DNA from: Caballeronia sp. SBC1
Lineage (GTDB): Bacteria > Pseudomonadota > Gammaproteobacteria > Burkholderiales > Burkholderiaceae
Reading direction: 5' to 3'
DNA: 64,000 nt
NCBI RefSeq assembly: GCF_011493005.1
Contig: NZ_CP049157.1
Location: 992,001 to 1,056,000 of the forward strand
The position numbers and the translations under genes are program-made. Shown one piece after another: positions 5,514-47,425 of the stretch (its first letter is position 1; every line of letters begins with the position of its first letter). The notes under the pieces were generated by a model. It saw nothing but the letters and a program-made list of their open reading frames with translations, made no database searches and was not told the origin of the DNA.

Positions 5514-6674
5514 TCATTCCGCGGACTTCGGTTGTAGCCCGACATAACGTGCGCGAGGCCGGATCAGGCGGCCCATTTGCGCTTGCTCCAACGCGTGCGC
5601 GAGCCAGCCGGCGCAGCGTGCAAGCGCGAAGAGTGACAGCGGCGCATGCGCCGGCAGATCAAAAGCAGCGGCAAGAACCGCCAGCGCGAAATCAACATTC
5701 GGCCGCTCGCCGACCGCCCTCTCCACGCACGCCGCAAGTTCTGCGTAAAGCGGCGGCACGGTCACTGTGTTGAGCAGAGCGCTCGCCCTGGGATCCCCAT
5801 CGGCGTATAGCGGATGACCGAATGCCGGAAACGCGCGGCCTTGCGCCAGCCAGTTGCGCACAGCCGCTTCCGGGCCGATATCGGTTGCCCACTCAATCAG
5901 CCCGCGAACCGACGACGATGCGCCTCCATGCAACGGTCCTGTGAGCGTAGCGAGGCCAGCCAGCACGCCAGCCGATAACGACGCGCCCGTGGAGACGGTG
6001 ACGCGCGTAGCGAAGGTCGATGCATTCAGTTCGTGATCGGCGAGTAAAACGAGGGCGCGCCGGATCGCGTCTTCCGCCTCGCTGCATCTCCACGATACGG
6101 CAAGCCGCTCGCTTAATGTGCGTCCCGCGCGCAAAGAAACAGTCCCGCCAAGGATGGCTTGTGCGAGCGTCGACAGCACACTGGCGGCCTCGTCTCGTAG
6201 CACAGCGGGGGTGCGTCCGCTCGATGGCAAGTCACGCGCGCTACGCCTGGCCAATGCGACGAGACTCGCGGTCAAAGGATCGTCGGCGCTGGCAGCCTTG
6301 CGCTTGATCGGCGGCTCGATGCAGACCGCATCGGCCTCCCACAGCAGCCCGGCTACCTCCTCAAACGACGCCGTGTTCGCGAGCTCGATGGCATCCCGTC
6401 CGCGATACCAAAGCTTCCCGTTCGACACCGTCGAGATAGCAGAAAGCAAAACGGGATCACCCCAGTCGATGGTCTGGGCCGCCACCTTCTCGACCTTGCG
6501 CTGTCCGCTACGGCGCTCCGCCATTCGCAATACATCGTCCCGGTGATAAAGGCTGCGGCGAGGGTCGGCCTTATCGGGTTTCGCGCGGATCTTTCCGCGG
6601 CTCACGTTCGCATACAGCGTCTGCGCACGGACGTTCAATACGCTCAACGCCTCGGCCGTCGTCATCCATGCCAT
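5514..6674 (-). CDS. Citrate-synthase-fold protein with N-terminal helix-turn-helix domain
   Basis: 386 residues. The first ~55 (MTTAEALSVLNVRAQTLYAN, then YHRDDVLRM) look like an excisionase/MerR-type DNA-binding helix-turn-helix. The rest is a shortened citrate synthase domain. The catalytic residues of the family are kept: H214 in DHELNAS, H249 in GPLHGGAS and D328 in RPNVDFAL, with the GHPLY loop between. It may therefore still condense an acyl-CoA with an oxo-acid, or bind such ligands as a sensor. The start at 6674 has GAGA just upstream; MTTAEAL at 6665 is an alternative. It diverges from dinB with two palindromes between them. Housekeeping citrate synthase is about 430 residues and lacks the HTH, so this is a paralogue of unknown role. 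Confidence 0.8.
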   Translation of the reverse strand: MAWMTTAEALSVLNVRAQTLYANVSRGKIRAKPDKADPRRSLYHRDDVLRMAERRSGQRKVEKVAAQTIDWGDPVLLSAISTVSNGKLWYRGRDAIELANTASFEEVAGLLWEADAVCIEPPIKRKAASADDPLTASLVALARRSARDLPSSGRTPAVLRDEAASVLSTLAQAILGGTVSLRAGRTLSERLAVSWRCSEAEDAIRRALVLLADHELNASTFATRVTVSTGASLSAGVLAGLATLTGPLHGGASSSVRGLIEWATDIGPEAAVRNWLAQGRAFPAFGHPLYADGDPRASALLNTVTVPPLYAELAACVERAVGERPNVDFALAVLAAAFDLPAHAPLSLFALARCAGWLAHALEQAQMGRLIRPRARYVGLQPKSAE

Positions 6675-6704
6675 GGGATCTCACATTGATGAATTGAATC
6701 AAGA

Positions 6705-6744
6705 TTGACGTCAACTTTATCAACATTAATATCCGTACGGTACG
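6705..6744. promoter_or_regulatory. Two palindromes between the HTH-citrate synthase and dinB genes
   Basis: TTGACGTCAA (6705-6714) is a perfect 10-bp palindrome, and CGTACgGTACG (6734-6744) is an 11-bp palindrome with one central base. Both lie in the 98-bp divergent promoter region. They are candidate operators, possibly for the DNA-binding domain of the citrate-synthase-fold protein itself. Confidence 0.4.
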
Positions 6745-6772
6745 AACGTTTTAGAGCCGCAAGGGGGACGAC

Positions 6773-7294
6773 ATGCAGAGCCTGCTCAAACAGCACTTCG
6801 ATACATTCGCACGCTACAACGCGTGGGCAAACACCCGCCTCTTCGATGCAGCCGCCCTCCTGAGCGACGCCGATTATCGAGCAGATCGCGGTGCGTTTTT
6901 CAAGTCGATACACGGCACGCTCAATCACTTGCTCGTGACCGACCGCGTATGGATGTTTCGTTTCACCGGCGAGGGCGATTCACCCGACCGGCTCGATGCG
7001 ATCCTCTTCGAGCAGCTTGAGTCGCTGCGCGATGCGCGTGAAACGGAGGACTCGCGGATCGTGCGGTACGTAACGGGGCTTAACGATGCTTCCCTGGAAG
7101 GTGCGATCACGTACCGGCGCGTCTCCACGCCGGAAGCGATCACGCAACCTCTCGCGCCTGCGCTGGCGCATTGGTTTAATCACCAGACGCATCACCGTGG
7201 CCAGGTGCATGCGCTGTTGACCGGTCTGGCGGGACGAGCGCCGGAACTTGACTTGCTCTTTTACCAGCGTCTCGCGGAGAAGGGGCTTGCCTGA
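6773..7294 (+). CDS. DinB/YfiT family putative metal-dependent protein
   Basis: A 173-residue four-helix-bundle protein. The family's metal triad is visible as H52 in GTLNHLL and the two histidines of NHQTHHRGQ near residues 137-141. DinB-like proteins are thiol-dependent transferases or stress proteins of mostly unknown substrate; many are damage-induced in Gram-positive bacteria. The start follows a GGGGGA ribosome-binding site. The gene diverges from the HTH-citrate synthase gene and is convergent with the GNAT gene; context does not reveal its role. This is not the DNA polymerase IV also called DinB. Confidence 0.8.
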   Translation: MQSLLKQHFDTFARYNAWANTRLFDAAALLSDADYRADRGAFFKSIHGTLNHLLVTDRVWMFRFTGEGDSPDRLDAILFEQLESLRDARETEDSRIVRYVTGLNDASLEGAITYRRVSTPEAITQPLAPALAHWFNHQTHHRGQVHALLTGLAGRAPELDLLFYQRLAEKGLA

Positions 7295-7307
7295 GCGGCA
7301 GCGGGCT

Positions 7308-7769
7308 TCATAGCGGCTTACGATAGACCACGGACCCTTGCTTCTCGGCGACCTTATCGTAGAGTTGCATTGCCGTGGTGTTGGTCTCTCGCGTGTGCCA
7401 ATACACGCGTTCAACACCTGATGTCTGTGCGTACCGATAAACCTCCTGGATCAGCTTGCGGCCAACCCCTTTTCCTCTGGCAGCCTCCGCAGTAAACAGA
7501 TCCTGCAGATAACAACTCGGGCCCAGTTGGATCGTGCTTCGATGAAAAAGAAAGTGCGTCAAACCGACTAACTCTCCCGCGCTTTCCGCGACCAGTGCAT
7601 GCATGGGCTCGTAGACATCGAAAAAACGGGACCACGTCATCCGCGTGATTTCAATTGGCAACGCCGTGTCGCCGTGGCGGTCATAAAAGGCGTTATAGCC
7701 ATCCCAGAGAAGCTTCCATGCGGGGAAATCGGAGGGCACAACGGGGCGTACGTGAATGGCTTCAATCAT
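7308..7769 (-). CDS. GNAT family N-acetyltransferase
   Basis: About 153 residues with a complete GNAT fold. The acetyl-CoA pyrophosphate loop is AARGKGVGRKLI (the Q/R-x-x-G-x-G/A motif), preceded by the strand CYLQDLFTAEAA and followed by ETNTTAMQLYDKVAEKQG. It probably acetylates a small amine or amino acid; the substrate is unknown. The ATG at 7769 gives the usual start MIEAIHVRPV. A GTG at 7799 would add ten residues. Neither has a strong ribosome-binding site. It is convergent with dinB. Confidence 0.75.
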   Translation of the reverse strand: MIEAIHVRPVVPSDFPAWKLLWDGYNAFYDRHGDTALPIEITRMTWSRFFDVYEPMHALVAESAGELVGLTHFLFHRSTIQLGPSCYLQDLFTAEAARGKGVGRKLIQEVYRYAQTSGVERVYWHTRETNTTAMQLYDKVAEKQGSVVYRKPL

Positions 7770-7818
7770 ATCGGGTGCATGGTGTGGTTGGGGGTTCACG
7801 CTTCAGTCGCGGCAAGTT

Positions 7819-8055
7819 TCATGGAGAGGCAGCGCAATCACCGAGCTGGGCATAGCGCTCGGCGGGGGTTTGTTTTCCCTGCGTATCGGCGTTGCGGCTT
7901 GCCACGCAAGAATCGAAATTTCTTTTCGATGCGTCAGCGACATGGCGAATGGGATAAGCCATCGCGAGCGCCACAATAAGCAGCATGACAATCAGCAACC
8001 GAGCCACACTCCGCACGAAAGTACGCGCTTCGAACTGTCGTGTAGCCGTTCCCAT
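7819..8055 (-). CDS. Small single-pass membrane or secreted protein, hypothetical
   Basis: A 78-residue frame with a hydrophobic stretch at about residues 20-34 (LLIVMLLIVALAMAY) and a short polar C-terminal part containing two cysteines. A GGCGG stretch lies about 10 nt before the ATG. It could be a small anchored or exported protein, but there is no recognised family and the frame could be fortuitous. It is separated from the GNAT gene by 20-50 bp and could share its transcript. Confidence 0.35.
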   Translation of the reverse strand: MGTATRQFEARTFVRSVARLLIVMLLIVALAMAYPIRHVADASKRNFDSCVASRNADTQGKQTPAERYAQLGDCAASP

Positions 8056-8403
8056 GATGTCCGCCTGGCTCGTGAGGTCAGTGACAAGAATAGAAGGGTG
8101 CTGGCACCGTTCATAGGTCCATTAAAAACAATAAACGTAGAGCCACGGCCGGGCTTGCGCGTAGCCCGCGAGGCCGTTGCCAAACTAGCCGAGATCGTGC
8201 GCTCCATGCCGAGCTCAACGGGCAAACCATCAAAAACGACGTCTAAAGTCTGAGTGCCATCTGCCGATAACGGGTAAACACCTATCCCACGAACTTACCA
8301 TTCATATAAACATATATATGTTTTAACGATTGGTTGACCATTTCATTCGTCAATCTCGGCTGGCCTCATTCATTCAAGCAAGATAAAGACGCACGGAGAC
8401 TCG
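8056..8403. other. Intergenic promoter region of the MFS/amidohydrolase operon
   Basis: About 350 bp without a supported gene. The part close to the MFS start is AT-rich and holds the palindrome at 8308-8323. A CGGAGA ribosome-binding site precedes the ATG at 8404. Nothing else recognisable was seen. Confidence 0.5.
8308..8323. promoter_or_regulatory. Perfect palindrome AAACATATATATGTTT upstream of the MFS gene
   Basis: A 16-bp perfect palindrome 80 bp before the MFS start. The 16-mer TAAACATATATATGTT is found again at 10539-10554 in front of the chemoreceptor gene. Two identical copies, each upstream of a gene in the same small cluster, point to a shared operator. The UTRA-type GntR regulator at 12.2-12.9 kb is the likeliest binder, by proximity only. 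Confidence 0.6.
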
Positions 8404-9651
8404 ATGTTTTCCTGGTACCGGCAGGTTTCTAAAGGTGAGCGATACACGTTCTGGGCGTGTTTCGGCGGTTGGGCGCTGGACGCTCTTGATGTCCAGATGT
8501 TCAGTCTCGTCATCCCCGCGATCATTGCGGAATGGGGTATCAGCAAGACCCAGGCAGGTCTCGTGAGCGGCGTCACGCTGGTGGCATCGGCACTCGGTGG
8601 ATGGATCTGTGGTGCAGCGGCGGATCGGTACGGCCGCGTGAAAACCCTGCAGGTCACCGTAGTCTTTTTCTCCGTCTTCACGTTACTGTCTGCGTTCGCG
8701 CAGAACTATCCGCAGTTCATCGTGCTGAAAGCGCTACAGGGTTTTGGCTTCGGCGGCGAATGGGCAGCGGGCGCGGTGCTGATGGCCGAGACCATTCGCA
8801 ATGAGCATCGCGGTAAGGCAATGGGCGCCGTACAAAGCGCATGGGCCGTCGGCTGGGCCGCCGCCGTGCTGCTCTATGCGACCGTGTTTTCGTTCATGTC
8901 GCCCGATATCGGCTGGCGGGTGATGTTCGGCATCGGTATCTTGCCTGCACTCCTGATCATCTACATTCGCCGCAATGTGAAGGAACCGGCTGCACCCGCG
9001 CGCAAGGAGGCGGTCCTGAAGGACGGGAAGGAACGCACGCCACTTCTGTCGATCTTCGCGCCCGACGTAATACGCATGACTCTCATCGGCGGCGTGCTGG
9101 GCGTGGGCGCACACGGCGGGTACTCGGCGCTGACGACCTGGCTGCCGACCTACCTGAAGACCGAGCGTCATCTTTCGGTGCTGAGTACCGGCGGCTATCT
9201 GGCGGTGATTATCGCGGCGTTTTTCTTCGGCTGTCTGGCCGCGTCGCAGTTGCTGGACCGGATCGGGCGACGCCAGACCATCCTGCTGTTTTCCGTGTGC
9301 TGCGTAGGGACGGTGATCGTGTACCTGTTCGTGCCGCTCTCCAATCACGCCATGCTAGCGCTCGGCTTCCCGCTCGGTTTCTTCGCTGCAGGCATTCCGG
9401 CCAGTATGGGCGCGCTGTTCAACGAACTCTATCCACGCGGCACGCGCGGTACCGGCGTAGGCTTTTGCTACAACTTCGGACGTGTCGTATCCGCCGGATT
9501 CCCCGTGATGGTGGGACATCTGGCCGCGAAGTATTCGCTCGGATTCGCGATCGGCGTGGACGCGGTCTTCGCTTATGCGATCGTCGCTGTCAGCGTGATG
9601 ATGCTGCCGGAAACGCGCGGGCGCACGCTAGCCGAAGACGTTCCGGCATAG
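8404..9651 (+). CDS. MFS transporter (aromatic acid/sialate-type H+ symporter)
   Basis: 415 residues with 12 hydrophobic segments. It resembles the NanT/aromatic-acid:H+ symporter groups: GWALDALDVQMFSLVIPA in TM1, the AADRYGRVKTL loop between TM2 and TM3, and FGFGGEWAAGAVLMAE in TM4. It probably imports the substrate of the amidohydrolase encoded 7 bp downstream, most simply an aromatic-derived acid or lactone. The two genes form an operon behind the palindrome at 8308-8323. Confidence 0.8.
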   Translation: MFSWYRQVSKGERYTFWACFGGWALDALDVQMFSLVIPAIIAEWGISKTQAGLVSGVTLVASALGGWICGAAADRYGRVKTLQVTVVFFSVFTLLSAFAQNYPQFIVLKALQGFGFGGEWAAGAVLMAETIRNEHRGKAMGAVQSAWAVGWAAAVLLYATVFSFMSPDIGWRVMFGIGILPALLIIYIRRNVKEPAAPARKEAVLKDGKERTPLLSIFAPDVIRMTLIGGVLGVGAHGGYSALTTWLPTYLKTERHLSVLSTGGYLAVIIAAFFFGCLAASQLLDRIGRRQTILLFSVCCVGTVIVYLFVPLSNHAMLALGFPLGFFAAGIPASMGALFNELYPRGTRGTGVGFCYNFGRVVSAGFPVMVGHLAAKYSLGFAIGVDAVFAYAIVAVSVMMLPETRGRTLAEDVPA

Positions 9652-36819: not shown

Positions 36820-39162
36820 ATGCGGGTCTTGGCGAGCAAAAAAATCCTGAGCATAACGACCGGCGATCGATCCCGCACTGCAGGCCCGCGCCTGCTCTAT
36901 GTCACCGCGTTGCTGGCGATTGGCATGGCAGCATGGGTGCGCCCCGCCCACGCCGCCGCACCGGCGTGTCTGGCCGACTCCGGTCCAGCTAATCGTCCTG
37001 CTATCGGTCTCGTACTGTCAGGCGGCGGCGCACGCGGTTATGCGCACCTTGGCGTGTTGAAAGTGCTCGAGGAGAACCGCATTCCGGTGGACTGCATCGC
37101 GGCAACCAGCATGGGCTCCGTGGTCGGTGGACTGTATGCCAGCGGCATGACCGCGCAGGACATGCAGAACCGCCTCGCGCAGATCAATCTCGCCGATGTC
37201 GCCTTCGACGTCACCGCCCGCGCCGACCTGCCGCAATCGCAACGCGAAGACGAGCGGCTGTATGTGAACAGCCTGTCCTTCGGTTTCGGTACGCACGGCT
37301 TCCGGCTGCCGACCGGCCTCGTGCAAGGTAACCGCCTGCAGGCGCTGCTGCAGGACTGGACCTCGGCCATCCCCGGGAACGTATCCTTCAACGGGCTGCC
37401 GATTCCGTTTCGCGCGATTGCCACCGACCTGCAAACCGGGCAGATGGTCGTGCTCGATCACGGCTCGCTGCCGCAGGCCATTCGTGCCAGCATGGCGCTG
37501 CCCGGCTTGTTCTCGCCGGCCGAAGTGGACGGCCGCACGCTGGTCGATGGCGGCCTCGTGAGCAACCTGCCGATCGAAACCGCCCGCTCGATGGGCGCGA
37601 ACGTAGTGATCGCGGTCGATATCGGCTCGCCGCTGCGGCCGCTCGATGCACTGGCTTCGCCTACGGACGTGATGCAGCAGATGATCGGCATCCTGATCCA
37701 CCAGAACGTCGCGCGGCAACGCCAGCAACTGGGTGCGGGCGACGTCCTGATCGAACCGGCGCTCGGCTCGCTGAGCTTCACGGATTTCGCCAATGCGCCT
37801 CAGGCGATTGCCGCGGGCGAGGCAGCCGCGATTGCGGCGCTGCCGAAGCTTCGGCATCTCGCGCTGTCGCCCGAGCAGTACGCGGCATATCGCGCCTCGC
37901 ACGCAACTCCCGGAACAAAGCCGGTACGCATTACGCGGATCGAAATAGAGTCGCGGGGCGCGGTGCCGCAGGGTCGCATCCGCGACGCGTTGCACGTCAA
38001 ACCCGGCGACGTCTACGATCCCAAGACGCTCAACAAGGATCTGCTGGCGCTCACCACCGCCGGAGATTTCGAAAGCATCACGCAGCAACTCATTGAAGAC
38101 GGCGACGAACATACGCTCATGATCGACGCTCGCGACAAATACTGGGGGCCGAACTTCCTGCTGTTCGGGCTTGGCTTGTCGAGCAGTTCTACCGACGCGG
38201 GCGGCTTCCGAATGCATGTGGGTTATCGGCGGCCATGGCTGACATCGTCGGGGCTGGAGGGTCGTATCGATGCAACGGTCGGCAGCGACCTGACGAACAT
38301 TCACGCCGAGTTGCGACAACCCTTGTCGAATGCGGCCGGATACTACATCGCGCCTTATCTGGAATTCCAGCGTCGCTACGCGAACATCTACAACGACGAT
38401 GGCGACACCAAGGTGACCCAATACTCACTGCAAACCGAACGCGCGGGCCTTGACTTCGGCCTGCCGCTGGCCACCCTGGGCGACTTCCGTGTCGGTGTCG
38501 CCTATGCGCATGCATTCGGTTCGCCGCAATACAACTTTCCAGCCGATATCTTCGACCCCAGTGCCCCACCCTCGGAGCAATTGTTCTCGGACATCTCTGG
38601 GAGGCAAATCAGTGCACGAGCACGCCTTGTGATCGATCAGCTCGATGATCCGCTGTTTGCGCGCAAGGGGTATTTCACGGAACTGCGCATGGAGCACTCT
38701 CTGTTCGCGGGCAGTGATAGCTTCACGGAGGTGTATGGCAAGGGACTTATTGCGGCGAGCTTCGGGCGTCACAGCTTCAACGCGAGCATCGAGGCTGGCG
38801 ACGATCTGGGCAGCACGACCAACCTGACCAATCCGCTCGGCTTCACGCTCGGCGGTTTCCAGCATCTGTCGGCTTATGCCGCTGATCAGTTGGCCGGCAA
38901 TTCGATGGTCTACGGCCAGGTCACCTACATGAACCAGCTCGCCGCGTTCAACGCATTGCCCATCCGCGGCTTGTATGCGGGGATGAGCCTGGAAGCCGGC
39001 AACGTCTGGGTGCACGACTCGCAATTCGGCAGTGGCCCGCTCAAGCGCAGCGTCACGCTCTTTACAGCCGCCACGAGTTCGTTTGGCCCGATCTATCTGG
39101 GCGTCGCATTTGCGCCGGGCGGCAGGAGAAACTTCTACTTCCAGCTTGGACACACCTATTGA
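36820..39162 (+). CDS. Patatin-like phospholipase with POTRA and beta-barrel (type Vd autotransporter, PlpD-like)
   Basis: 780 residues. A signal peptide covers about residues 1-46. The patatin domain (about 58-340) contains the oxyanion motif SGGGARGYAHLG (from residue 67), the nucleophile S97 in ATSMGS and the dyad aspartate D243 in VDGGLVSN. The serine elbow has Ala where GxSxG proteins have the first Gly. A POTRA-like segment (about 365-440) leads into a C-terminal outer-membrane barrel of alternating aromatic/hydrophobic strands that ends in YFQLGHTY. By analogy with Pseudomonas PlpD it should secrete or display a phospholipase A. It stands alone on this strand. Confidence 0.85.
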   Translation: MRVLASKKILSITTGDRSRTAGPRLLYVTALLAIGMAAWVRPAHAAAPACLADSGPANRPAIGLVLSGGGARGYAHLGVLKVLEENRIPVDCIAATSMGSVVGGLYASGMTAQDMQNRLAQINLADVAFDVTARADLPQSQREDERLYVNSLSFGFGTHGFRLPTGLVQGNRLQALLQDWTSAIPGNVSFNGLPIPFRAIATDLQTGQMVVLDHGSLPQAIRASMALPGLFSPAEVDGRTLVDGGLVSNLPIETARSMGANVVIAVDIGSPLRPLDALASPTDVMQQMIGILIHQNVARQRQQLGAGDVLIEPALGSLSFTDFANAPQAIAAGEAAAIAALPKLRHLALSPEQYAAYRASHATPGTKPVRITRIEIESRGAVPQGRIRDALHVKPGDVYDPKTLNKDLLALTTAGDFESITQQLIEDGDEHTLMIDARDKYWGPNFLLFGLGLSSSSTDAGGFRMHVGYRRPWLTSSGLEGRIDATVGSDLTNIHAELRQPLSNAAGYYIAPYLEFQRRYANIYNDDGDTKVTQYSLQTERAGLDFGLPLATLGDFRVGVAYAHAFGSPQYNFPADIFDPSAPPSEQLFSDISGRQISARARLVIDQLDDPLFARKGYFTELRMEHSLFAGSDSFTEVYGKGLIAASFGRHSFNASIEAGDDLGSTTNLTNPLGFTLGGFQHLSAYAADQLAGNSMVYGQVTYMNQLAAFNALPIRGLYAGMSLEAGNVWVHDSQFGSGPLKRSVTLFTAATSSFGPIYLGVAFAPGGRRNFYFQLGHTY

Positions 39163-39204: not shown

Positions 39205-40404
39205 TCAAACAACACCCACCGGCCAGCTCAACTCGAAGCGCGCACCGGCCAACGTGACGGGGTCGGTGGCGCCGATCCGGCCGTTGTGCGCGTGCAGCAC
39301 CTGACGAGTAATCGCGAGGCCGATTCCGTAGCCCGCAGTATGGCGATCGAGTCGCACGAACGCGTTGAAAATATGCTCGCGCTCGCTTTCCGGCACACCC
39401 GTTCCATCGTCTTCTACAAAGATCTCCACGTTGCCGTGACGCACGGATAAACCGACCACGATCCGCGAGCGCGCATATTTGCTGGCGTTGCGGAGCAGGT
39501 TGCGCATGGCATACGACATCAGGCGCTTGTCCATCACGACCTGCACCGTCTCGTCGATCTCAATCGCCGGCACGATCTGCTTGTCCGCGTACATCAGCGT
39601 GGCGTCGGTCAACTGGCTGTTGAACCACGCTACCAGCGATGTAGGTTCAAGACTCGATTGCAGCGAACTGTATTCGAGCCGTGCATACGTAAGGCTCATA
39701 TCGATCAGTTCGTCGAGTTCGGTGACGTCCTGCGCAATGCTCGCCAGCGCGTGTTCGTACTCCGCTGTCGAGCTTGGCTGACGCAGTATCTCCAGCGCAA
39801 AACGTACACGCGCAAGCGGCGTGCGCAGTTCGTGCGAGATGCCGTTGGTGAGTTCGCGTTGTGCGGCGATCAGGCGTTCCATGCGTTCGGCCAGCGCATT
39901 GAGCGTACGCGCCAACGGGCCGAGGATCACGCTATGCGACACCTGCGCCCGCGTGTTGAAACGTCCACCCGTGAAGTCGATCGCGCGCTCGCGGATGATC
40001 ACGAGGTCATGCCAGACCGGCCGCATCCAGCGATACGCCACCACCGCTGGCAACGCGAATACGATCAGGATCATCGACGCCCCGTCGCCCGGCAACACGT
40101 CGAATGCATGCCACACCACGCCCGGCGTCAGCACATACGCCAACACCAGCAGCAGGATCACGGCGACGAGCAACGCCAGCCCCAACAGACGAAAATAGGC
40201 GCGCAGAAAAAGTCTCGACCAGCTTGGAATGCGGTCGGCGCGCGTGTCGGTCCACGACCGGCGAAAGTGCAGCCAGCGCCATTTGCAGTATCGGAAGGTG
40301 GTGAGTTTTTGTGCGGCAGAGTTCATGGTCACGGACAGGTTCAGATGAGCGGGCGAGCCGGACAGCGGCGCTCGCCCAAACCAATGCGCCGGTGCGCGGC
40401 TCAC
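39205..40404 (-). CDS. Sensor histidine kinase (RstB-like), third gene of the two-component operon
   Basis: 399 residues: a membrane-anchored kinase with hydrophobic segments near residues 65-90 and 107-125, a HAMP-like linker, and the DHp motif SHELRTPLARVR with phosphoacceptor H191. The ATPase blocks are NLLRNASKYA (N box), VEDDGTGVPE (G1) and GYGIGLAIT (G2). The GTG start overlaps the hydrolase stop as GTGA, indicating translational coupling; an ATG at 40326 (MNSAAQK) is an alternative start. It should phosphorylate the OmpR-type regulator encoded at 41336-42043. The periplasmic part is very short, so the signal may be sensed in the membrane. Confidence 0.85.
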   Translation of the reverse strand: MSRAPAHWFGRAPLSGSPAHLNLSVTMNSAAQKLTTFRYCKWRWLHFRRSWTDTRADRIPSWSRLFLRAYFRLLGLALLVAVILLLVLAYVLTPGVVWHAFDVLPGDGASMILIVFALPAVVAYRWMRPVWHDLVIIRERAIDFTGGRFNTRAQVSHSVILGPLARTLNALAERMERLIAAQRELTNGISHELRTPLARVRFALEILRQPSSTAEYEHALASIAQDVTELDELIDMSLTYARLEYSSLQSSLEPTSLVAWFNSQLTDATLMYADKQIVPAIEIDETVQVVMDKRLMSYAMRNLLRNASKYARSRIVVGLSVRHGNVEIFVEDDGTGVPESEREHIFNAFVRLDRHTAGYGIGLAITRQVLHAHNGRIGATDPVTLAGARFELSWPVGVV

Positions 40405-41204
40405 GCAAGCATACCGGTACGCTGTACAAACGCGACGGTGTAGTCAGCGACGGTGTTGCGTTCGTTATCGAGCGTGATCATGTGGTAGCTGTCAGTCAGG
40501 CGCACCAGCGTGACGTCGCGCGTGCCGAGATGTTTGCAGACGAACTCGGCGGATCGGATGCTCGTGACTTCGTCTTCTTCCGAATGCATCACAAGCGTCT
40601 CGCACGTGACACGCGACAACGCGCGTTTGACGGCAAACCGCATCCAGTCCACCTGGGCAATCGCGGCAAGCGGCACGTACGGATAATGCGCACCGCCGCC
40701 CTTCAGCAGATGCCGGCGGATCAGGTTGCGGATACGCGTGTTCTTGATGCCGAACGGCTCGCCCTCTGGCACGCGAATCAGGTTGCGCAATCCCGGCACG
40801 CAATACAGCAGGTAACGCAGCGGCTGGAAACGCGACCCGGCCCAACCATCGAGGAAAAGCGGCGGCGACAGCAGGATCAGGCGGCCTTTACCTTTACCCA
40901 TGCGCTCGCGGGCGCTCAACATCACCGCGAGCAATGCGCCCATCGAAATGCCGGCCACATCGACACGTTCATAACGCAACGCCAGGTCCCGGTAAGTCCG
41001 GCTCAACAGTTGCATGTAGTCGCGCAGGCTCACGCCGCTCAACTGGTCGGGGCACGAGCCGTGACCCGGTAGCGACGGCAGGTACACGTCGCAGCCAATC
41101 TGTTCGAACTTTCGGTCGAGCGACCCGAAATCGTGACGCGTGCCGCCCAGGCCATGAATCATCAGAACGGCGTGATTTGAAGGAGGTGAAACGTCGGTGG
41201 ACAT
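40401..41204 (-). CDS. Alpha/beta hydrolase (carboxylesterase-like) inside a two-component operon
   Basis: 267 residues with the esterase/lipase fold. The oxyanion motif is MIHGLGGTRHDF near residue 15, the nucleophile serine is in AGISMGALLAV (about residue 84), and the acid and histidine are likely in HSEEDEVT and TDSYHMITLDNE. It resembles Est30-type carboxylesterases. There is no signal peptide. The gene lies between the response regulator and the kinase, and its stop overlaps the kinase start by 4 bp. The three-box array at 41262-41297 ends 57 bp before its ATG, so the hydrolase and kinase form a separately promoted pair. Confidence 0.8.
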   Translation of the reverse strand: MSTDVSPPSNHAVLMIHGLGGTRHDFGSLDRKFEQIGCDVYLPSLPGHGSCPDQLSGVSLRDYMQLLSRTYRDLALRYERVDVAGISMGALLAVMLSARERMGKGKGRLILLSPPLFLDGWAGSRFQPLRYLLYCVPGLRNLIRVPEGEPFGIKNTRIRNLIRRHLLKGGGAHYPYVPLAAIAQVDWMRFAVKRALSRVTCETLVMHSEEDEVTSIRSAEFVCKHLGTRDVTLVRLTDSYHMITLDNERNTVADYTVAFVQRTGMLA

Positions 41205-41261
41205 GGCACAGGCTCTTAGCAGAATAAGCCTGCGATACTAGCCGCGCCGCGCACGCATGAC

Positions 41262-41297
41262 TGTCGAGTTACACGGGCGATTGTCGAGTTTTGTCGA
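41262..41297 (-). promoter_or_regulatory. Three-box array TCGACA-N4-TCGACA-N14-TCGACA upstream of the hydrolase-kinase pair
   Basis: Read on the minus strand, TCGACA occurs at 41297-41292, 41287-41282 and 41267-41262, with start-to-start distances of 10 and 20 bp. The first 16 bases, TCGACAAAACTCGACA, are identical to those of the array at 42231. Helical phasing by about one and two turns is typical of OmpR-family sites. The array ends 57 bp before the hydrolase start codon. Confidence 0.75.
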
Positions 41298-41335
41298 TAC
41301 AGCTCCGTGCTTCCGAGCTTCCGTTCTTCGCGGCT

Positions 41336-42043
41336 TTAGTCCCACGCGCCCGTGCTGAACTGATAGCCCTTGCCGCGGATGGTCTTGATACGCTGCGGCG
41401 TGCTTGTATCGTCTTGCAGTTTCCGGCGCAGCCGTGAGATGCCGCCGTCGATGGTGCGGTCAAGGCCGTCGAATTCGAGCCCGCGCAACTGCCGCATCAG
41501 GTTGTCGCGGCTGACCACTTCGCCCGCACAGCTCACCAATGCCCACAACAAGTCGAATTCCGCTGAAGTCAGCTCAGGCGCGCTGCCGTCCGGCAGCTTC
41601 ACGCTGCGGCTCGCACGGCTGATCTCGAATTTGCCGAACGAAAAGCTGTCCGGTTGACTGGCCGCGTTGGCGATGCGGCCCACCTCGCGGCGCAGTTGCG
41701 CCTTGATGCGTGCCAGCAGGATGCGCGGCTCGACTGGCTTGTGAACGTAGTCATCGGCACCGAATTCGAGGCCCAGCACTTCGTCGAACTGGTCGTCGCG
41801 AGCGGTCACCATGATGATCACGCCGTCAAAGTGCTCGCGTGCCTCACGACAGATCTGGAAGCCATCCTTGCCCGGCAGGTTGACGTCGAGGATCACCAGG
41901 TCGGGCTGGCCTTTCAGGATGGCCGGAACCGCGTCGTTGCCGTGCAGCACGACGTCGACGTGGTAATCATGTTTGCGCAGATAGCCGGCGACCAGCGCGG
42001 ACAGGCGGTCGTCGTCTTCTACGAGCAGAATCCGGAAGGGCAT
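41336..42043 (-). CDS. OmpR/RstA-like response regulator
   Basis: 235 residues. The receiver domain (1-120) has the acidic pocket EDDD at 9-12, phospho-acceptor D53 in ILDVNLPGKDG, the threonine in VTARDD and the lysine in HKPVEPR. The winged-helix output domain (about 135-233) has the usual LTSAEFDLLWAL start and RGKGYQF end. The ATG at 42043 gives the normal length; the frame is open upstream to 42247. The kinase partner is two genes downstream. It diverges from the DUF535 gene, and the three-box array between them is its probable binding site. Confidence 0.88.
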   Translation of the reverse strand: MPFRILLVEDDDRLSALVAGYLRKHDYHVDVVLHGNDAVPAILKGQPDLVILDVNLPGKDGFQICREAREHFDGVIIMVTARDDQFDEVLGLEFGADDYVHKPVEPRILLARIKAQLRREVGRIANAASQPDSFSFGKFEISRASRSVKLPDGSAPELTSAEFDLLWALVSCAGEVVSRDNLMRQLRGLEFDGLDRTIDGGISRLRRKLQDDTSTPQRIKTIRGKGYQFSTGAWD

Positions 42044-42230
42044 GAGGGGTTCTTTCCAGACGGACTGGTTGGGATGCTGGCCTACCACAGTGACGGCAGC
42101 GTACACAATACGGTCAGCGCCAGCGGACGCTGCCCGAATAATACTGCGAAGCGTCCCGTTTATCCCCACTGGCTGGACGTGTCCGCGCGACGCGAAGGAT
42201 ACCGGACGCGCCGGATCAGGCCCGGATCGC

Positions 42231-42266
42231 TCGACAAAACTCGACAATTCTCCAAGTAATTCGACA
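42231..42266 (+). promoter_or_regulatory. Three-box array TCGACA-N4-TCGACA-N14-TCGACA upstream of the DUF535 gene
   Basis: TCGACA at 42231, 42241 and 42261, the same spacing as the array at 41262-41297 but in the opposite orientation. It ends 61 bp before the DUF535 start codon and lies 188 bp upstream of the response regulator start, so it could serve both. Two matching arrays around one response regulator gene make it the obvious candidate binder. Confidence 0.75.
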
Positions 42267-42327
42267 CGAAGGCGTAAGGGCCGCCGCTAGCATCCTTTCG
42301 ATCGAAACACTGAAAGGATCTGCCGGG

Positions 42328-43290
42328 ATGCCTCTACTAATCGGATGGTTTGGTGCGGGTTCACGGTGGCTGGCCGATCTCGCCCATGCCTGCGCCGCGA
42401 TCCAGCGCGCCGGGAGCGCACTTTACCCGGGCGCGAGCCGCTTCCACCGCTGGCGGCGTATGCGTTTCTGGCTACGCTCGCTGGTTTGCTGGCAGACGAC
42501 GAACGTGTGGCTCGAGCGCTGTTCAAGTGAGCCGCTGCTCGATCTGGTGAAGCGCCACCCCGCCACGCTTGAACGCATGCACCGGCCATTCCTGCACGGC
42601 CGTTTCAGTCCGGGCGAACGGCTTGTCGCGAGCCTGGATCACCATATGCTCACGCAACAGCGCGTGCCGCATCTGGCCAACCGGATCGCAACTGTTGGAC
42701 GGGTGCCAGTCGCGCACTTCTCGGTCGGGCTCGAACGCTGGCAGGTGTCGCTCGAATCGATCGAACATTTCCAGAGAGAAGGCGACTGGACTTTATGCAT
42801 TCGCGATGCGCTCGACCAGCGCGTGGTGTCGTGCACGTTCAGCCTTGCTTATCTTGGCGGCAAGGTACGCCGGCCGCGCATGTGCATTGGCTCCGTGCAG
42901 GGTCCGGATAAATCGGTGAACGGACGCGAGCTGTTTCGTGTGCTGACGAAGCGCTGGCACGGGCTGCGGCCCAAAATCTTCGTGATCTACCTGGCGCAAT
43001 GCGTAGCGCAAGCGCTCGATGTGGACGGGACGTTCATTGTGTCGAAGCACGCCCATGTGTATGCGAACTGGCGCTACTGTCTGCGCAAGCGCCGGGTGTC
43101 CGCCGACTACGATAGTTTGTCGCGCGAATGTGGCGCGTTCAATGACTGGAATGGGTGGTTCGTGCTTGGGCCGCCGGCACTTTATATGGCGGATCAGCAA
43201 GGGACAGACTCGGGGAACGCGGCACGGCGCAAACGCTATGCGCTCAGGGCAGACGTTGCTTCGCAGATCAAGGCCAGTCTCAGGCAATGA
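42328..43290 (+). CDS. DUF535 (VirK/YbjX family) protein
   Basis: 320 residues of the VirK/YbjX family. Supporting blocks are LERMHRPFLHGRFS near residue 92, DWTLCIRDALDQRV and IGSVQGPDKSVNGRELFR in the middle, and DGTFIVSKHAHVYAN, YDSLSRECGAF near the C-terminus. Family members in enteric bacteria (VirK, YbjX, SomA) are linked to envelope stress and antimicrobial-peptide resistance and are regulated by PhoPQ; the biochemical activity is unknown. Here the gene is divergent from an OmpR-type regulator and carries that system's presumed box array upstream, so it is probably a main target. Confidence 0.8.
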   Translation: MPLLIGWFGAGSRWLADLAHACAAIQRAGSALYPGASRFHRWRRMRFWLRSLVCWQTTNVWLERCSSEPLLDLVKRHPATLERMHRPFLHGRFSPGERLVASLDHHMLTQQRVPHLANRIATVGRVPVAHFSVGLERWQVSLESIEHFQREGDWTLCIRDALDQRVVSCTFSLAYLGGKVRRPRMCIGSVQGPDKSVNGRELFRVLTKRWHGLRPKIFVIYLAQCVAQALDVDGTFIVSKHAHVYANWRYCLRKRRVSADYDSLSRECGAFNDWNGWFVLGPPALYMADQQGTDSGNAARRKRYALRADVASQIKASLRQ

Positions 43291-44829: not shown

Positions 44830-45261
44830 TTACCGCGCATTCGCTTTAGGCTTGATATTCCTCTGGGCGTCGAACATCTTGAAGGCAAGCATGCCTGCAA
44901 CCATGGCTGCGAGGAAGACCACAGCCCCGAGTTTCCCCGCGCCCACCGCTACCACGACCGGTCCTGGACAAAACCCCGCCAGTCCCCAACCGACTCCAAA
45001 AATCGCGCTTCCCACGATCAATTGCGCATCGATTTTTTTCTTCGTGGGGAGATGCTTGGTTTCTTCGAGAAGCGGCTTTCCAGTCCGCCGGCTCGCAAAA
45101 AACCCGACTGATGCAAACGCGACTGCGCCAATCATGACAAAGGCCAACGAAGGATCCCAATTCCCCGCGAGGTCGAGGAAACCAAGGATCTTAGCGGGGT
45201 TCGCCATGCCGGAGATGATCAGGCCTAGACCGAAAAGCAGCCCGGCCAGAAACGAACTCAT
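44830..45261 (-). CDS. YeeE/YedE family (DUF6691-type) membrane protein, sulfur transport half
   Basis: 143 residues with four hydrophobic segments. Motifs AGLLFGLGLIISGMANPAKI near the start and GVGWGLAGFCPGPVVVAVGAG with its conserved cysteine are typical of the second half of split YeeE/YedE (PmpB-like) transporters, which move thiosulfate or related sulfur. The ATG at 45261 is preferred; an ATG at 45288 would overlap the upstream gene. It overlaps or abuts its partner, so the two halves are made together. Confidence 0.8.
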   Translation of the reverse strand: MSSFLAGLLFGLGLIISGMANPAKILGFLDLAGNWDPSLAFVMIGAVAFASVGFFASRRTGKPLLEETKHLPTKKKIDAQLIVGSAIFGVGWGLAGFCPGPVVVAVGAGKLGAVVFLAAMVAGMLAFKMFDAQRNIKPKANAR

Positions 45262-45271
45262 GTTTCGCACG

Positions 45272-45706
45272 CTAGCCACCCCACACATGTCTGATAGCGA
45301 AAACTGTCGCGAAACCCGTCATCATGAAAGTCAACGTCGCAACAACCGAGCGAACCGAACCACGCGATATTCCGCACACGCCATGGCCACTCGTACAGCC
45401 GCTTGCCGCGCTCGTGCCGAATCCGACCAGCAAGCCGCCGAGAACAAGAAGCGGCCCGCTGGTCTGGATGACGATCGGCGATAAAGGTCTCACCAAAACA
45501 TAAAGCACCGGCGCGGCAAACAGCCCGGCAACAAAAGAAATTCTCCACCCGTCACGCCATCCACCCGCAGTCAGAAGGCCGCCAAGCACCCCGCTGATCC
45601 CAGCAATATGCCCGTTGAGCAGCATGAAAAGCGCCGCGGACAGACCGATCATCGCGCCTCCCAGCAGGGACTTGATCGGCGTGAAATTCACCCAGTCGAC
45701 CACCAT
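45272..45706 (-). CDS. YeeE/YedE family membrane protein, sulfur transport half
   Basis: 144 residues, mostly hydrophobic. LLGGAMIGLSAALFMLLNGHIAGISGVLGGLL (given as the blocks GGAMIGLSAA and GHIAGISGVLGG) and FGTSAASGCTSGHGVCGISRGS carry the conserved cysteines of the YeeE thiosulfate transporter family (PmpA-like). AGGA precedes the ATG at 45706. It is the first gene of a two-gene minus-strand operon and diverges from the persulfide dioxygenase operon, so uptake and oxidation are probably co-regulated. Confidence 0.82.
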   Translation of the reverse strand: MVVDWVNFTPIKSLLGGAMIGLSAALFMLLNGHIAGISGVLGGLLTAGGWRDGWRISFVAGLFAAPVLYVLVRPLSPIVIQTSGPLLVLGGLLVGFGTSAASGCTSGHGVCGISRGSVRSVVATLTFMMTGFATVFAIRHVWGG

Positions 45707-45861
45707 CGTTCGCAATCCTGTTTTCGTTTGCAGTTGTAGATTCGCGGCCTTCTTCGGACGGATTTCTCACGCTTGATTCCCGTCCCGGCACCCGCGTTCC
45801 CAGTCCACGACGCCTTTCACCCGTTGACTTTCCACGCCTTCAATACTATATTCTGTATTAA

Positions 45862-45873
45862 TATAAGCTTATA
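45862..45873. promoter_or_regulatory. Palindrome TATAAGCTTATA in the divergent sulfur promoter region
   Basis: A perfect 12-bp palindrome in an AT-rich stretch (about 45845-45913) between the YeeE/YedE pair and the persulfide dioxygenase gene. The stretch looks like back-to-back promoters. It could be the operator of an ArsR-type sulfide/persulfide sensor (BigR/SqrR group); no such gene is in the window. Confidence 0.5.
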
Positions 45874-45913
45874 CTCAAAAGTAATATAGCGATTTTTCTA
45901 AGGTTATAAAGGA

Positions 45914-46633
45914 ATGCTGTTCCGGCAATTTTTCGACAGTCAGTCGAGCACCTACACCTATGTGCTCGCCTCTCGTGCAGGCGGAGAGGCGGTAATCATC
46001 GATCCAGTAAAAGAGCAGCTTGACCAATACCTGCAAGTGATCGAGCAGTTGGATCTGCGGCTGGTTCACGCTATTGACACCCACATGCACGCCGATCACA
46101 TCACAGCGCTGGGTGACCTGCGCGACGCCACGCACTGCACCACCATCATGGGCGAATTATCGCAGGCGCATTGTGTATCGCAGCACGTTCGTGAAGACGA
46201 GATCGTGCGGTTCGACGGCATCGAACTACGCGCGCTCTATACACCCGGACACACCAACGAATCGTTTAGCTTCGTCCTGGACCCATCGTCACCCAAGGCC
46301 GTTTTCACCGGCGATGTCCTGCTCATCCGCGGCAGCGGACGTACAGACTTTCAGGGCGGCGATCCGCATCGGTCATGGGATTCGATCGTCAACAAGCTGT
46401 TCACGCTACCCGACGCAACCACGCTCTATCCCGCGCACGATTACAAGGGATGGACCGCGTCGAGCATTGGCGAGGAGAAGCACTTCAATCCGAGGCTGGC
46501 CGGGAAAACCGAAAGCGAATACGTGGAGATCATGAGGGGTCTGAATCTGCCGAACCCCAAGATGATGGATGTCGCCATCCCTGCGAACCTGGCATGCGGT
46601 CAGCCATCGACGCCAGTAAAGCGCCAGGGCTGA
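45914..46633 (+). CDS. Persulfide dioxygenase-like MBL-fold hydrolase (ETHE1/Blh group)
   Basis: 239 residues. The metal motif THMHADHITAL gives H57, H59, D61 and H62; further ligands are in TPGHTNES and FTGDVLLIRGSGRTDFQGGD (blocks FTGDVLL and GSGRTDFQGG), with PAHDYKG as the last histidine. GSGRTDFQ is the mark of persulfide dioxygenases, which oxidise glutathione persulfide to sulfite and glutathione using one iron. It heads the plus-strand sulfur operon; the product sulfite could leave through the TauE protein encoded 3 bp downstream. Confidence 0.85.
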   Translation: MLFRQFFDSQSSTYTYVLASRAGGEAVIIDPVKEQLDQYLQVIEQLDLRLVHAIDTHMHADHITALGDLRDATHCTTIMGELSQAHCVSQHVREDEIVRFDGIELRALYTPGHTNESFSFVLDPSSPKAVFTGDVLLIRGSGRTDFQGGDPHRSWDSIVNKLFTLPDATTLYPAHDYKGWTASSIGEEKHFNPRLAGKTESEYVEIMRGLNLPNPKMMDVAIPANLACGQPSTPVKRQG

Positions 46634-46636
46634 TCG

Positions 46637-47425
46637 ATGATCCTTGCTTCCACCCCAGCGACACAAGCTGTCGCAGCAGTGCTGTGCGGCGGTTTTGTGA
46701 GCTTCTCCCTCGGCCTCGTCGGCGGAGGCGGTTCGATCCTTGCCGTGCCGCTCATTCTCTACGTGGTCGGCGTTCACAATCCGCACATCGCGATCGGGAC
46801 CGCGGCGTTGGCGGTCGCAGTCAGCGCCTACATCAACATGATCCCGCACGCGCGAGCCGGACATGTGCGGTGGGGACCGGCCTTCGCGTTCGCGGCGAGC
46901 GGCGTGCTTGGCGCGACGCTTGGCTCGTCCGTCGGCAAGCTGATCGACGGCCAGAGGCTTTTGACTTATTTTGCGTTTGTAATGTGCTTTGTCGCTTTCC
47001 TCATGCTCCGGCCGCGCCCATCGGCAGCGGCCACTGGCGACGCTTACCCGACGCCTTATCCGCGCTTATGCGGGACGGGATTGGGGGCAGGAAGCTTGTC
47101 GGGATTCTTCGGGATCGGCGGAGGTTTTCTGGTGGTCCCGGGCTTGATGTTCGCGGGTCGAATGCAGATCGTCGATGCAATCGGCACGTCGTTATTCGCG
47201 GTGGGTTCGTTTGGTTTGACGACAGCAATCAACTACTCGCTCTCGGGTCAGGTCGACTGGCTGGTTGCGGCGGAATTTGTCGGCGGCGGTGTGGTTGGCG
47301 GCTTGGCTGGCGCGCAGGCGGCAAGCCGCCTTGCACGCAAGCGCGGCGCGCTGAATCGCGTTTTCTCCGCGATGATCATTTCGGTCGCTGCCTATATGCT
47401 GTATCACTCATGGCAGGCGCGATGA
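46637..47425 (+). CDS. TauE/SafE family sulfite/organosulfur exporter
   Basis: 262 residues with about eight hydrophobic segments in two repeats: GGGSILAVPLILYVVGV near residue 30 and FFGIGGGFLVVPGLMF near residue 155, the paired TauE/SafE signatures. The family exports sulfite, sulfoacetate and related anions. It starts 3 bp after the persulfide dioxygenase stop, which produces sulfite, so sulfite export is a consistent role. Confidence 0.85.
   Translation: MILASTPATQAVAAVLCGGFVSFSLGLVGGGGSILAVPLILYVVGVHNPHIAIGTAALAVAVSAYINMIPHARAGHVRWGPAFAFAASGVLGATLGSSVGKLIDGQRLLTYFAFVMCFVAFLMLRPRPSAAATGDAYPTPYPRLCGTGLGAGSLSGFFGIGGGFLVVPGLMFAGRMQIVDAIGTSLFAVGSFGLTTAINYSLSGQVDWLVAAEFVGGGVVGGLAGAQAASRLARKRGALNRVFSAMIISVAAYMLYHSWQAR

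What the first reader, a model, noticed from the sequence alone, without database searches (positions are those of the whole stretch)
41262..42266. Matching three-box arrays define a candidate two-component regulon: DUF535 protein, hydrolase and kinase
TCGACA occurs three times at 42231, 42241, 42261, and three times in mirror image at 41297, 41287, 41267 (minus strand): identical spacing of 10 and 20 bp, with the first 16 bases identical. Each array ends about 60 bp before a start codon (DUF535 gene; hydrolase-kinase pair), and both flank one OmpR-type regulator gene. This phasing suits tandem binding of OmpR-family dimers. Such a box and regulon are not something I recognise from RstA or PhoP.
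Basis: partly seen in the sequence, partly recalled or inferred. Interest (0 to 1): 0.75.

Follow-up and report, generated by a model that had tools for sequence, protein, structure and literature searches.

The report
RstA-like regulator's paired DNA boxes
In some Caballeronia and Paraburkholderia soil bacteria, an RstA-like regulator gene has the same array of short DNA boxes, spaced like probable docking sites for it, on both sides; the arrays probably let it switch on a VirK-type envelope gene, a lipase-like gene and its own sensor kinase.

Summary
Two exact TCGACA-N4-TCGACA-N14-TCGACA arrays flank the regulator gene, each 21 bp before a TAGYAT -10, and are the only strong copies in the 8.85-Mb genome. 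In relatives found by the regulator sequence alone, an array accompanies DUF535 in 14 of 14 loci and the hydrolase in 17 of 17. In 30 Burkholderia/Trinickia loci with neither neighbour it is found upstream in 0 and downstream in 1. Where DUF535 is missing, boxes stay and its -10 is gone. Of 117 Paraburkholderia genomes, strong arrays occur in 24 of 26 with the regulator and 0 of 91 without, mostly linked to the regulator gene itself; three also carry arrays before a polysaccharide-deacetylase gene elsewhere.

The regulator's nearest curated model is RstA; it is probably the orthologue of BesR of Burkholderia thailandensis. The array is an RstA-box relative: GACA-N6-GACA instead of TACA-N6-TACA. 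The RstA residue contacting the replaced T (Val203) is Gly in 60 of 61 family loci. Binding and activation are inferred, not shown. New variant of a known kind.

The parts
42231..42266 (+). Array 2: TCGACA boxes at 42231-42236, 42241-42246, 42261-42266 between the divergent DUF535 and regulator genes
   Evidence: exact; box1-2 core 92%, box3 98% mean column identity in 19 aligned loci against 59% for 42044-42230
42288..42293 (+). Putative -10 (TAGCAT) of the DUF535 gene, 21 bp after box 3
   Evidence: 99% identity in 19 loci; TAGCAT in 16 and TAGGAT in 1 of 17 loci with DUF535; neither in 3 of 3 hydrolase loci without DUF535
42196..42201 (-). Putative -10 (TATCCT) of the regulator gene, 29 bp on the other side of box 1
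   Evidence: AGGATA/AGCATA block about 90% identity; inference, no start site mapped
41262..41297 (-). Array 1: TCGACA boxes at 41292-41297, 41282-41287, 41262-41267, between regulator stop and hydrolase start
   Evidence: exact; counterpart in 19 of 19 loci with the hydrolase, window included
41235..41240 (-). Putative -10 (TAGTAT) of the hydrolase-kinase unit, 21 bp after box 3
41336..42043 (-). OmpR-family response regulator, RstA/BesR-like, 235 aa
   Evidence: PF00072, PF00486; best NCBIfam RstA, 245 bits, cut-off 330
40401..41204 (-). Alpha/beta hydrolase, monoacylglycerol-lipase-like, 267 aa
   Evidence: PF12697, PF12146; 5xks, E 7.5e-23
39205..40326 (-). RstB-like sensor histidine kinase, 373 aa, two hydrophobic segments with a short stretch between them
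   Evidence: (best NCBIfam RstB, 225 bits, cut-off 478)
42328..43290 (+). DUF535 (VirK/YbjX family) protein, 320 aa; C-terminal half of the model resembles GNAT acyltransferases, inconclusively
   Evidence: PF04393, E 2.7e-50

Best explanation
The two arrays are operator sites of the RstA/BesR-like response regulator encoded between them. Phosphorylated regulator binds head to tail: boxes 1 and 2 (GACA-N6-GACA, one helical turn apart) hold one dimer, and box 3, two turns further on and just at the -35 position, anchors a second, asymmetric dimer. Neither promoter has a consensus -35, so bound regulator recruits RNA polymerase to the TAGYAT -10. Array 2 activates DUF535 and probably also feeds back on the regulator gene, read the other way. 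Array 1 activates hydrolase plus kinase, so the kinase is fed back separately. The signal is probably envelope damage such as polymyxin, as for BesRS. Shown by sequence: arrays, spacing, conservation, distribution, gene families. Inferred: binding, dimer layout, direction of regulation, signal.
For: (1) Arrays exact and unique in the genome. (2) With DUF535 next to the regulator 17 of 17 loci score 25-28 and with the hydrolase 19 of 19 score 23-28; shuffle maximum 18 in 992. Leaving out the window and L021/L023, which were found by the array pattern, it is 14 of 14 and 17 of 17. (3) Distribution follows the neighbour genes: of 30 Burkholderia/Trinickia loci with regulator but neither neighbour, 0 upstream and 1 downstream site exceed 18. 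In Paraburkholderia genus g20, 25 of 25 regulator-bearing genomes with DUF535 and/or hydrolase have an R1 match (E<=0.01) by the regulator; G413, with neither, has none. (4) -10 and boxes separate: without DUF535 the boxes stay but TAGCAT is gone (3 of 3 named loci); in g20 the upstream R1 match reaches the -10 in 20 of 20 genomes with DUF535 and 0 of 5 without. (5) In L042 an insertion separates regulator from array 1 and the array stays with the hydrolase. (6) RstA box is TACA-N6-TACA (PMC4117788); here GACA-N6-GACA. Arg199 is kept; Val203, said to contact T6, is Gly in 60 of 61 loci (Ala in L082), and V, A or M in 21 of 21 outgroups. (7) The element tested for BesR-dependent penL expression (PMC9426598) contains a match to the array matrix, p 0.0026 (shuffles) and 0.0014 (random). 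(8) Arrays at a distant deacetylase gene in 3 of 26 regulator-bearing and 0 of 91 other genomes, p 0.01.
Against: No binding or expression data. The scoring scheme was written after I had seen the sequences. The bare pattern is not specific: with up to 1 mismatch it occurs in 20 of 249 genomes, and in only 3 of these (G000, G183, G219) at this cluster. Burkholderia and Trinickia keep the regulator, with Gly203, but almost no array beside it; R1 finds none in 65 Burkholderia-like genomes, 28 of 30 checked of which carry the regulator. Position 207 is Lys in most loci and Val203 is Ala in many outgroups, so the residue argument is loose. The penL match is weak (9 of 16 bases), I saw it before scoring it, the authors read the repeats as TGCG/CGCA, and their change M-2, which lowered expression, lies outside the 16-bp core I score. 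Box 3 has no conserved partner half-site. Same-genus G265 has a strong array but no regulator hit, beside a DUF535 relic. Orthology with BesR is inferred; I did not obtain its sequence.
Confidence: 0.8

Rival explanations
1. The regulator binds the arrays but mainly represses or only autoregulates; DUF535 and hydrolase were recruited next to a pre-existing autoregulatory box.
For: Pandoraea has the two-box core upstream of the regulator without DUF535 or hydrolase: 8 of 9 loci have cores scoring 22-28 with a matrix not trained on them (L082 not scored), though the full three-box score exceeds 18 in only 6 of 9. A possible -10 lies about 28 bp on the regulator side (read). Boxes persist where DUF535 is absent. 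besRS expression is higher with BesR than without (PMC9426598).
Against: Array plus 21 bp plus a TAG-type -10 recurs before DUF535, hydrolase and a distant deacetylase gene (TAA-type in L260); box 3 at the -35 position without a consensus -35 is typical of activation.
Confidence: 0.3
2. The arrays are sites for a different DNA-binding protein that happens to control this cluster.
For: No direct binding data; Burkholderia-like genomes carry regulator orthologues (28 of 30) but R1 finds no array in 65.
Against: Boxes have the RstA-type repeat geometry, flank an RstA-type gene, and strong arrays occur in 0 of 91 regulator-lacking genomes of g20.
Confidence: 0.08
3. The two arrays are a recent duplication of one promoter without further meaning.
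For: 18 identical leading bases in the window; the distal deacetylase arrays are close copies of the hydrolase type.
Against: The two positions carry mostly distinct variants (box 2 TCGACA versus mostly TCCACA) kept separately in relatives, and boxes are far better conserved than flanks.
Confidence: 0.04
4. Chance repeat in GC-rich DNA.
For: The two-box form with mismatches is at chance level.
Against: Three-box form 0.07 expected, 2 found, both exact; conservation.
Confidence: 0.005

Closest known systems
BesRS of Burkholderia thailandensis (PMC9426598)
   Same: RstA/RstB-like pair; D83 and F94 at the same numbers as in the window protein; tested cis element contains a weak match to the array core
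   Different: In the window the kinase is cut off from the regulator by an array and a hydrolase gene; DUF535 is divergent; the published box is described as TGCG/CGCA repeats; R1 found no array in 65 Burkholderia-like genomes
RstA/RstB of E. coli and Klebsiella (RstA box TACA-N6-TACA, PMC4117788)
   Same: Best curated models for both proteins; tandem xACA sites with 10-bp period; Arg199, Arg207, Arg226 present in the window protein
   Different: First half-site base G (or C) instead of T, with Val203 replaced by Gly; short stretch between the kinase's hydrophobic segments (RstB's periplasmic domain is far longer, recalled); scores below the RstA and RstB cut-offs; different target genes
Salmonella PhoP promoters, architectures III/IV, and virK/ybjX (PMC3335776)
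   Same: virK and ybjX (DUF535 family) are driven by two boxes of an OmpR-family activator; in architecture III/IV the near box lies 21-23 nt before the -10, here 21 nt
   Different: Different box sequence ((T/G)GTTTA repeats); the virK and ybjX promoters themselves are architecture II (near box about 12 nt before the -10)
BfmR of Pseudomonas aeruginosa (CGTAC-N0/5-CGTAC, PMC10924945)
   Same: Direct repeat with a 10-bp period in the N5 form
   Different: TAC core rather than GAC; siderophore targets

Membership tests
OmpR/PhoB-family response regulator | Receiver domain plus Trans_reg_C winged helix | tested here: met
   PF00072 E 1.2e-23, PF00486 E 6.6e-23
RstA (NCBIfam equivalog NF007977) | Score above curated cut-off 330 | tested here: not met
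   245 bits, still the best of 96 models matched
RstB (NCBIfam equivalog NF007898) | Score above curated cut-off 478 | tested here: not met
   225 bits, best of 76 models matched
RstA-type box | TACA-N6-TACA tandem sites | tested here: not met
   Spacing met, first base of the half-site differs (GACA/CACA)
BesRS | Regulator residues D83 and F94 | tested here: met
   Present in the window protein and in the Burkholderia loci printed, except Ile at 94 in L091
BesRS | Kinase gene immediately downstream of the regulator | tested here: not met
   In the window an array and a hydrolase gene lie between. Met in the Burkholderia orthologue loci; the three second Burkholderia copies fetched have no kinase hit. 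Gene length (711 bp) fits both copies and does not decide.
BesRS | Sequence identity to BTH_RS09135 itself | not tested
   Sequence not found: besR primer search 0 of 60 and 0 of 65 genomes
BesRS | Induction by polymyxin B / beta-lactams | not testable with these tools
   needs expression data
VirK/YbjX (DUF535) | PF04393 above cut-off | tested here: met
   171.7 bits, cut-off 27
GNAT acyltransferase fold (for DUF535) | Clear structural match | tested here: inconclusive
PhoP regulon | (T/G)GTTTA-N5-(T/G)GTTTA box | tested here: not met
   Neither array strand contains GTTTA (read against PMC3335776)

The most novel reading that the evidence does not exclude
A Burkholderiaceae-wide branch of RstA-type regulators changed its half-site from TACA to (G/C)ACA through loss of the Val203 contact. 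In Paraburkholderia and Caballeronia this drives a small envelope-remodelling regulon of a VirK/YbjX-type putative acyltransferase, a lipase, in some species a polysaccharide deacetylase, and the kinase itself on a separate regulator-dependent promoter. If so, the published BesR box should be re-read as a 10-bp nACA direct repeat.
Probability: 0.4. Interest if true: 0.6.

Novelty: new variant of a known kind. Interest (0 to 1): 0.45.

Why it matters
It gives a concrete, testable operator consensus and target set for an envelope-stress two-component system for which the one paper found by name is in Burkholderia thailandensis, and it links DUF535/VirK proteins to an RstA-type regulator outside enterobacteria. 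It also offers a natural case in which one recognition-helix residue and one half-site base appear to have changed together.

Tried and rejected
Rejected: chance and simple promoter duplication. The two next-best hits in the own genome (E 0.016 and 0.021) are two copies of one stretch; the copy examined lies in coding sequence of an RHS-repeat-like gene (named by recall). Weak R1 hits were fetched from two regulator-lacking genomes (L271, L272) and one regulator-bearing Pandoraea genome (L273); none showed similarity to the cluster's genes and none was followed further. In the own genus five more genomes have weak R1 hits (E 0.004-0.008), not followed. My first site scan used a consensus with wrong spacing and was replaced. 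For L042 the downstream scan was moved to the stretch before the hydrolase because of the insertion. The besR primers gave only partial matches to Burkholderia loci (10-14 of 19-20 bases) and decide nothing. No solved relative of DUF535 by sequence; Foldseek's best hits are not convincing. Paper searches for Paraburkholderia with RstA and RstB (5 papers) and for Paraburkholderia with polymyxin B, response regulator and two-component system (1 paper) listed no title or abstract describing this regulon; that covers only the held open-access library.

Papers seen: PMC4117788, PMC9178039, PMC10924945, PMC13109725 and PMC3335776 as passages only; PMC9426598 outline with abstract, passages, section 7 and part 1 of 2 of section 10; all others only as search listings. 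RstB's long periplasmic domain is recalled.

Full report
What is there. The window lies in an 8.85-Mb genome of five contigs; the nearest named locus is Caballeronia sordidicola S170, regulator 96% identical (L032). On the minus strand lie an OmpR-type response regulator (41336-42043), an alpha/beta hydrolase (40401-41204) and a sensor kinase (39205-40326); a DUF535 gene runs the other way (42328-43290). Both TCGACA arrays are exact, and no other copy with up to one mismatch exists in the genome. A sequence-only profile of 37 arrays (R1; the window's two are among them) finds these two at E 4e-15 and 2e-13. The next hits are at 0.016 and 0.021, two copies of one stretch, and the copy examined lies in coding sequence. 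The bare pattern is not specific by itself: with up to one mismatch it occurs in 20 of 249 family genomes, in three of them at this cluster; the reversed control pattern occurs in 4 of those listed.

Promoter anatomy. In both arrays box 3 is followed by 21 bp and then TAGCAT or TAGTAT. With that as -10, box 3 lies at about -39 to -34 and boxes 1-2 at about -69 to -54; there is no consensus -35 (read). This resembles Salmonella PhoP promoters of architecture III/IV, whose near box is 21-23 nt before the -10 (PMC3335776, passages). Array 2 also has a conserved possible -10 for the regulator 29 bp on its other side. In 19 aligned intergenic regions, mean column identity is 92% (boxes 1-2), 73% (spacer), 98% (box 3), 71% (spacer to -10), 99% (-10), 77% (42294-42327) and 59% (42044-42230).

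Conservation with the genes. Of the 80 loci found with the regulator I scored 59 (L032-L088, L091, L093) plus the window, L021 and L023; the other 21, more distant, were not scored. The scoring scheme was written after seeing the sequences; the shuffle maximum was 18 in 992. With DUF535 present 17 of 17 score 25-28 upstream; with the hydrolase 19 of 19 score 23-28 downstream. L021 and L023 came from the array pattern itself; without them and the window the counts are 14 of 14 and 17 of 17. L023, with kinase but no hydrolase, still scores 23 before the kinase. A short 39% DUF535-like stretch in L078 is not counted; that locus scores 21. Thirty Burkholderia/Trinickia loci without either neighbour give 0 upstream and 1 downstream (L049, 20.5) above 18. 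In the three hydrolase loci without DUF535 (L034, L038, L048) the upstream boxes remain (20.5-22) but TAGCAT is gone. In L042 an insertion lies between regulator and array 1, and the array stays with the hydrolase; G371 shows the same insertion and may be the same strain. In Pandoraea the two-box core lies upstream of the regulator in 8 of 9 loci (matrix scores 22-28; these sequences were not in the matrix), while the full score exceeds 18 in 6 of 9.

Across genomes. In 117 genomes of Paraburkholderia genus g20 (named through G428, whose contig length equals that of a P. fungorum record), the regulator (E<=1e-85) is in 26. R1 at E<=1e-4 is in 24 of those 26 and 0 of 91 others; at E<=0.01 it is 25 of 26 and 7 of 91. 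Reading the two lists together, the 24 have matches on both sides of the regulator. The exceptions are G399, with a weak array (E 0.0012) next to the regulator, and G413, which has regulator and kinase but neither DUF535 nor hydrolase beside them and no array. The upstream match reaches the -10 in 20 of 20 genomes with DUF535 and 0 of 5 with hydrolase only. Two cautions: arrays flank the regulator gene, so this is largely one linked locus, and some g20 genomes are the assemblies from which R1 was built. Apart from linkage, G365, G426 and G373 carry hydrolase-type arrays elsewhere, before a polysaccharide deacetylase gene (PF01522 in the two tested, L258 and L260; in L260 about 0.6 kb away); a glycosyltransferase gene follows in L258 and L260, and a second divergent array is present in all three. 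That is 3 of 26 against 0 of 91, p 0.01. G371 and G346 have further off-locus arrays (E 2e-8 and 5e-4) with no cluster gene in the 5.5 kb fetched, and arrays also lie beside second, kinase-less regulators (L267-L269). In the own genus 3 of 58 genomes have the regulator; R1 hits strongly in these and in G265, where it sits before a DUF535 gene with an internal deletion, a relic; five more have weak hits. R1 finds nothing at E<=0.01 in 65 genomes of Burkholderia-like genus g11 (name inferred), 28 of 30 of which carried the regulator (stricter filters, as where R1 did find arrays).

What the regulator is. The best NCBIfam models are RstA and RstB, both below their cut-offs. RstA binds TACA-N6-TACA (PMC4117788, passages); the arrays read GACA-N6-GACA, the same period. 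The paper's contacts are Arg199 to G17' and T16' on the strand opposite TACA, Val203 to T6, Arg207 to G5. That T6 is the first T of TACA is my reading. The numbering fits the 4NHJ sequence at the six residues named in the passages. The window protein has Arg at 199, 207 and 226 and Gly at 203; most relatives have Lys at 207. Gly203 is present in 60 of 61 Burkholderiaceae loci (Ala in L082), and Val, Ala or Met in 21 of 21 more distant loci. That this explains T to G is inference.

Link to BesRS. B. thailandensis BesRS is an RstAB-like pair whose regulon responds to polymyxin B and ampicillin and which appears autoregulated (PMC9426598). The window regulator has D83 and F94 at the same positions. 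Burkholderia copies next to a kinase fit the published gene order, while three second copies fetched have no kinase hit. I did not obtain the BesR sequence. The paper's tested element contains GCCACAAATTTGCACG, which the array matrix prefers at p 0.0026 (shuffles) and 0.0014 (random). I saw the resemblance before scoring, only 9 of 16 bases agree, the authors read the repeats otherwise, and a change that lowered expression (M-2) lies just outside this core.

Verdict. Binding, activation and signal remain inferred. On checking against the calls I lowered confidence from 0.85 to 0.8 and the novel case from 0.45 to 0.4, because of the M-2 result, Lys207 and the overlap between R1's sources and the genomes searched.

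Noticed in passing
L258:889-3293, L259:2718-3994, L260:2829-5665: Hydrolase-type array before a polysaccharide deacetylase gene (glycosyltransferase following in L258 and L260), with a second divergent array; in L259 an MFS transporter lies on that side.
   Followed up: partly
L263:2617-3265: Relic in a same-genus genome without a regulator hit: intact array and -10 before a DUF535 gene lacking its middle part.
   Followed up: partly
L267, L268, L269: Regulator paralogues (73-76% identical) without kinase hit, with a three-box array but no TAGCAT upstream.
   Followed up: no
L159-L161: Some Burkholderia-like genomes carry a second, kinase-less copy of the regulator (67-69% identical in the three fetched).
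   Followed up: partly
L042 about 5703-7400; L044 about 6690-8600: Insertions with transposase-like ORFs (named by recall) between regulator and hydrolase array (L042) and between hydrolase and kinase (L044).
   Followed up: no
39208-40326: The RstB-like kinase and most orthologues checked have only a short stretch (6-20 residues between predicted windows) between two hydrophobic segments.
   Followed up: partly
36820-39162: Patatin-POTRA-Omp85 protein (type Vd secretion-like, by recall), convergent with the kinase and next to it in many relatives.
   Followed up: no
L049:5706-5925: GTTACA-TAAA-TCGACA-N15-TTGACA-N21-TATCAT between regulator and kinase in a locus labelled Burkholderia multivorans; score 20.5, above the shuffle maximum.
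   Followed up: no
L264:2893-2953: In Pandoraea nosoerga (G092/L082) an R1 match (E 3e-4) lies about 1.9 kb upstream of the regulator instead of beside it.
   Followed up: no
44830-47425: Likely sulfur cluster: a DUF6691/Sulf_transp protein, a second such membrane protein, a metallo-beta-lactamase-fold dioxygenase-like protein and a TauE-like permease (the last three named from sequence by recall).
   Followed up: no
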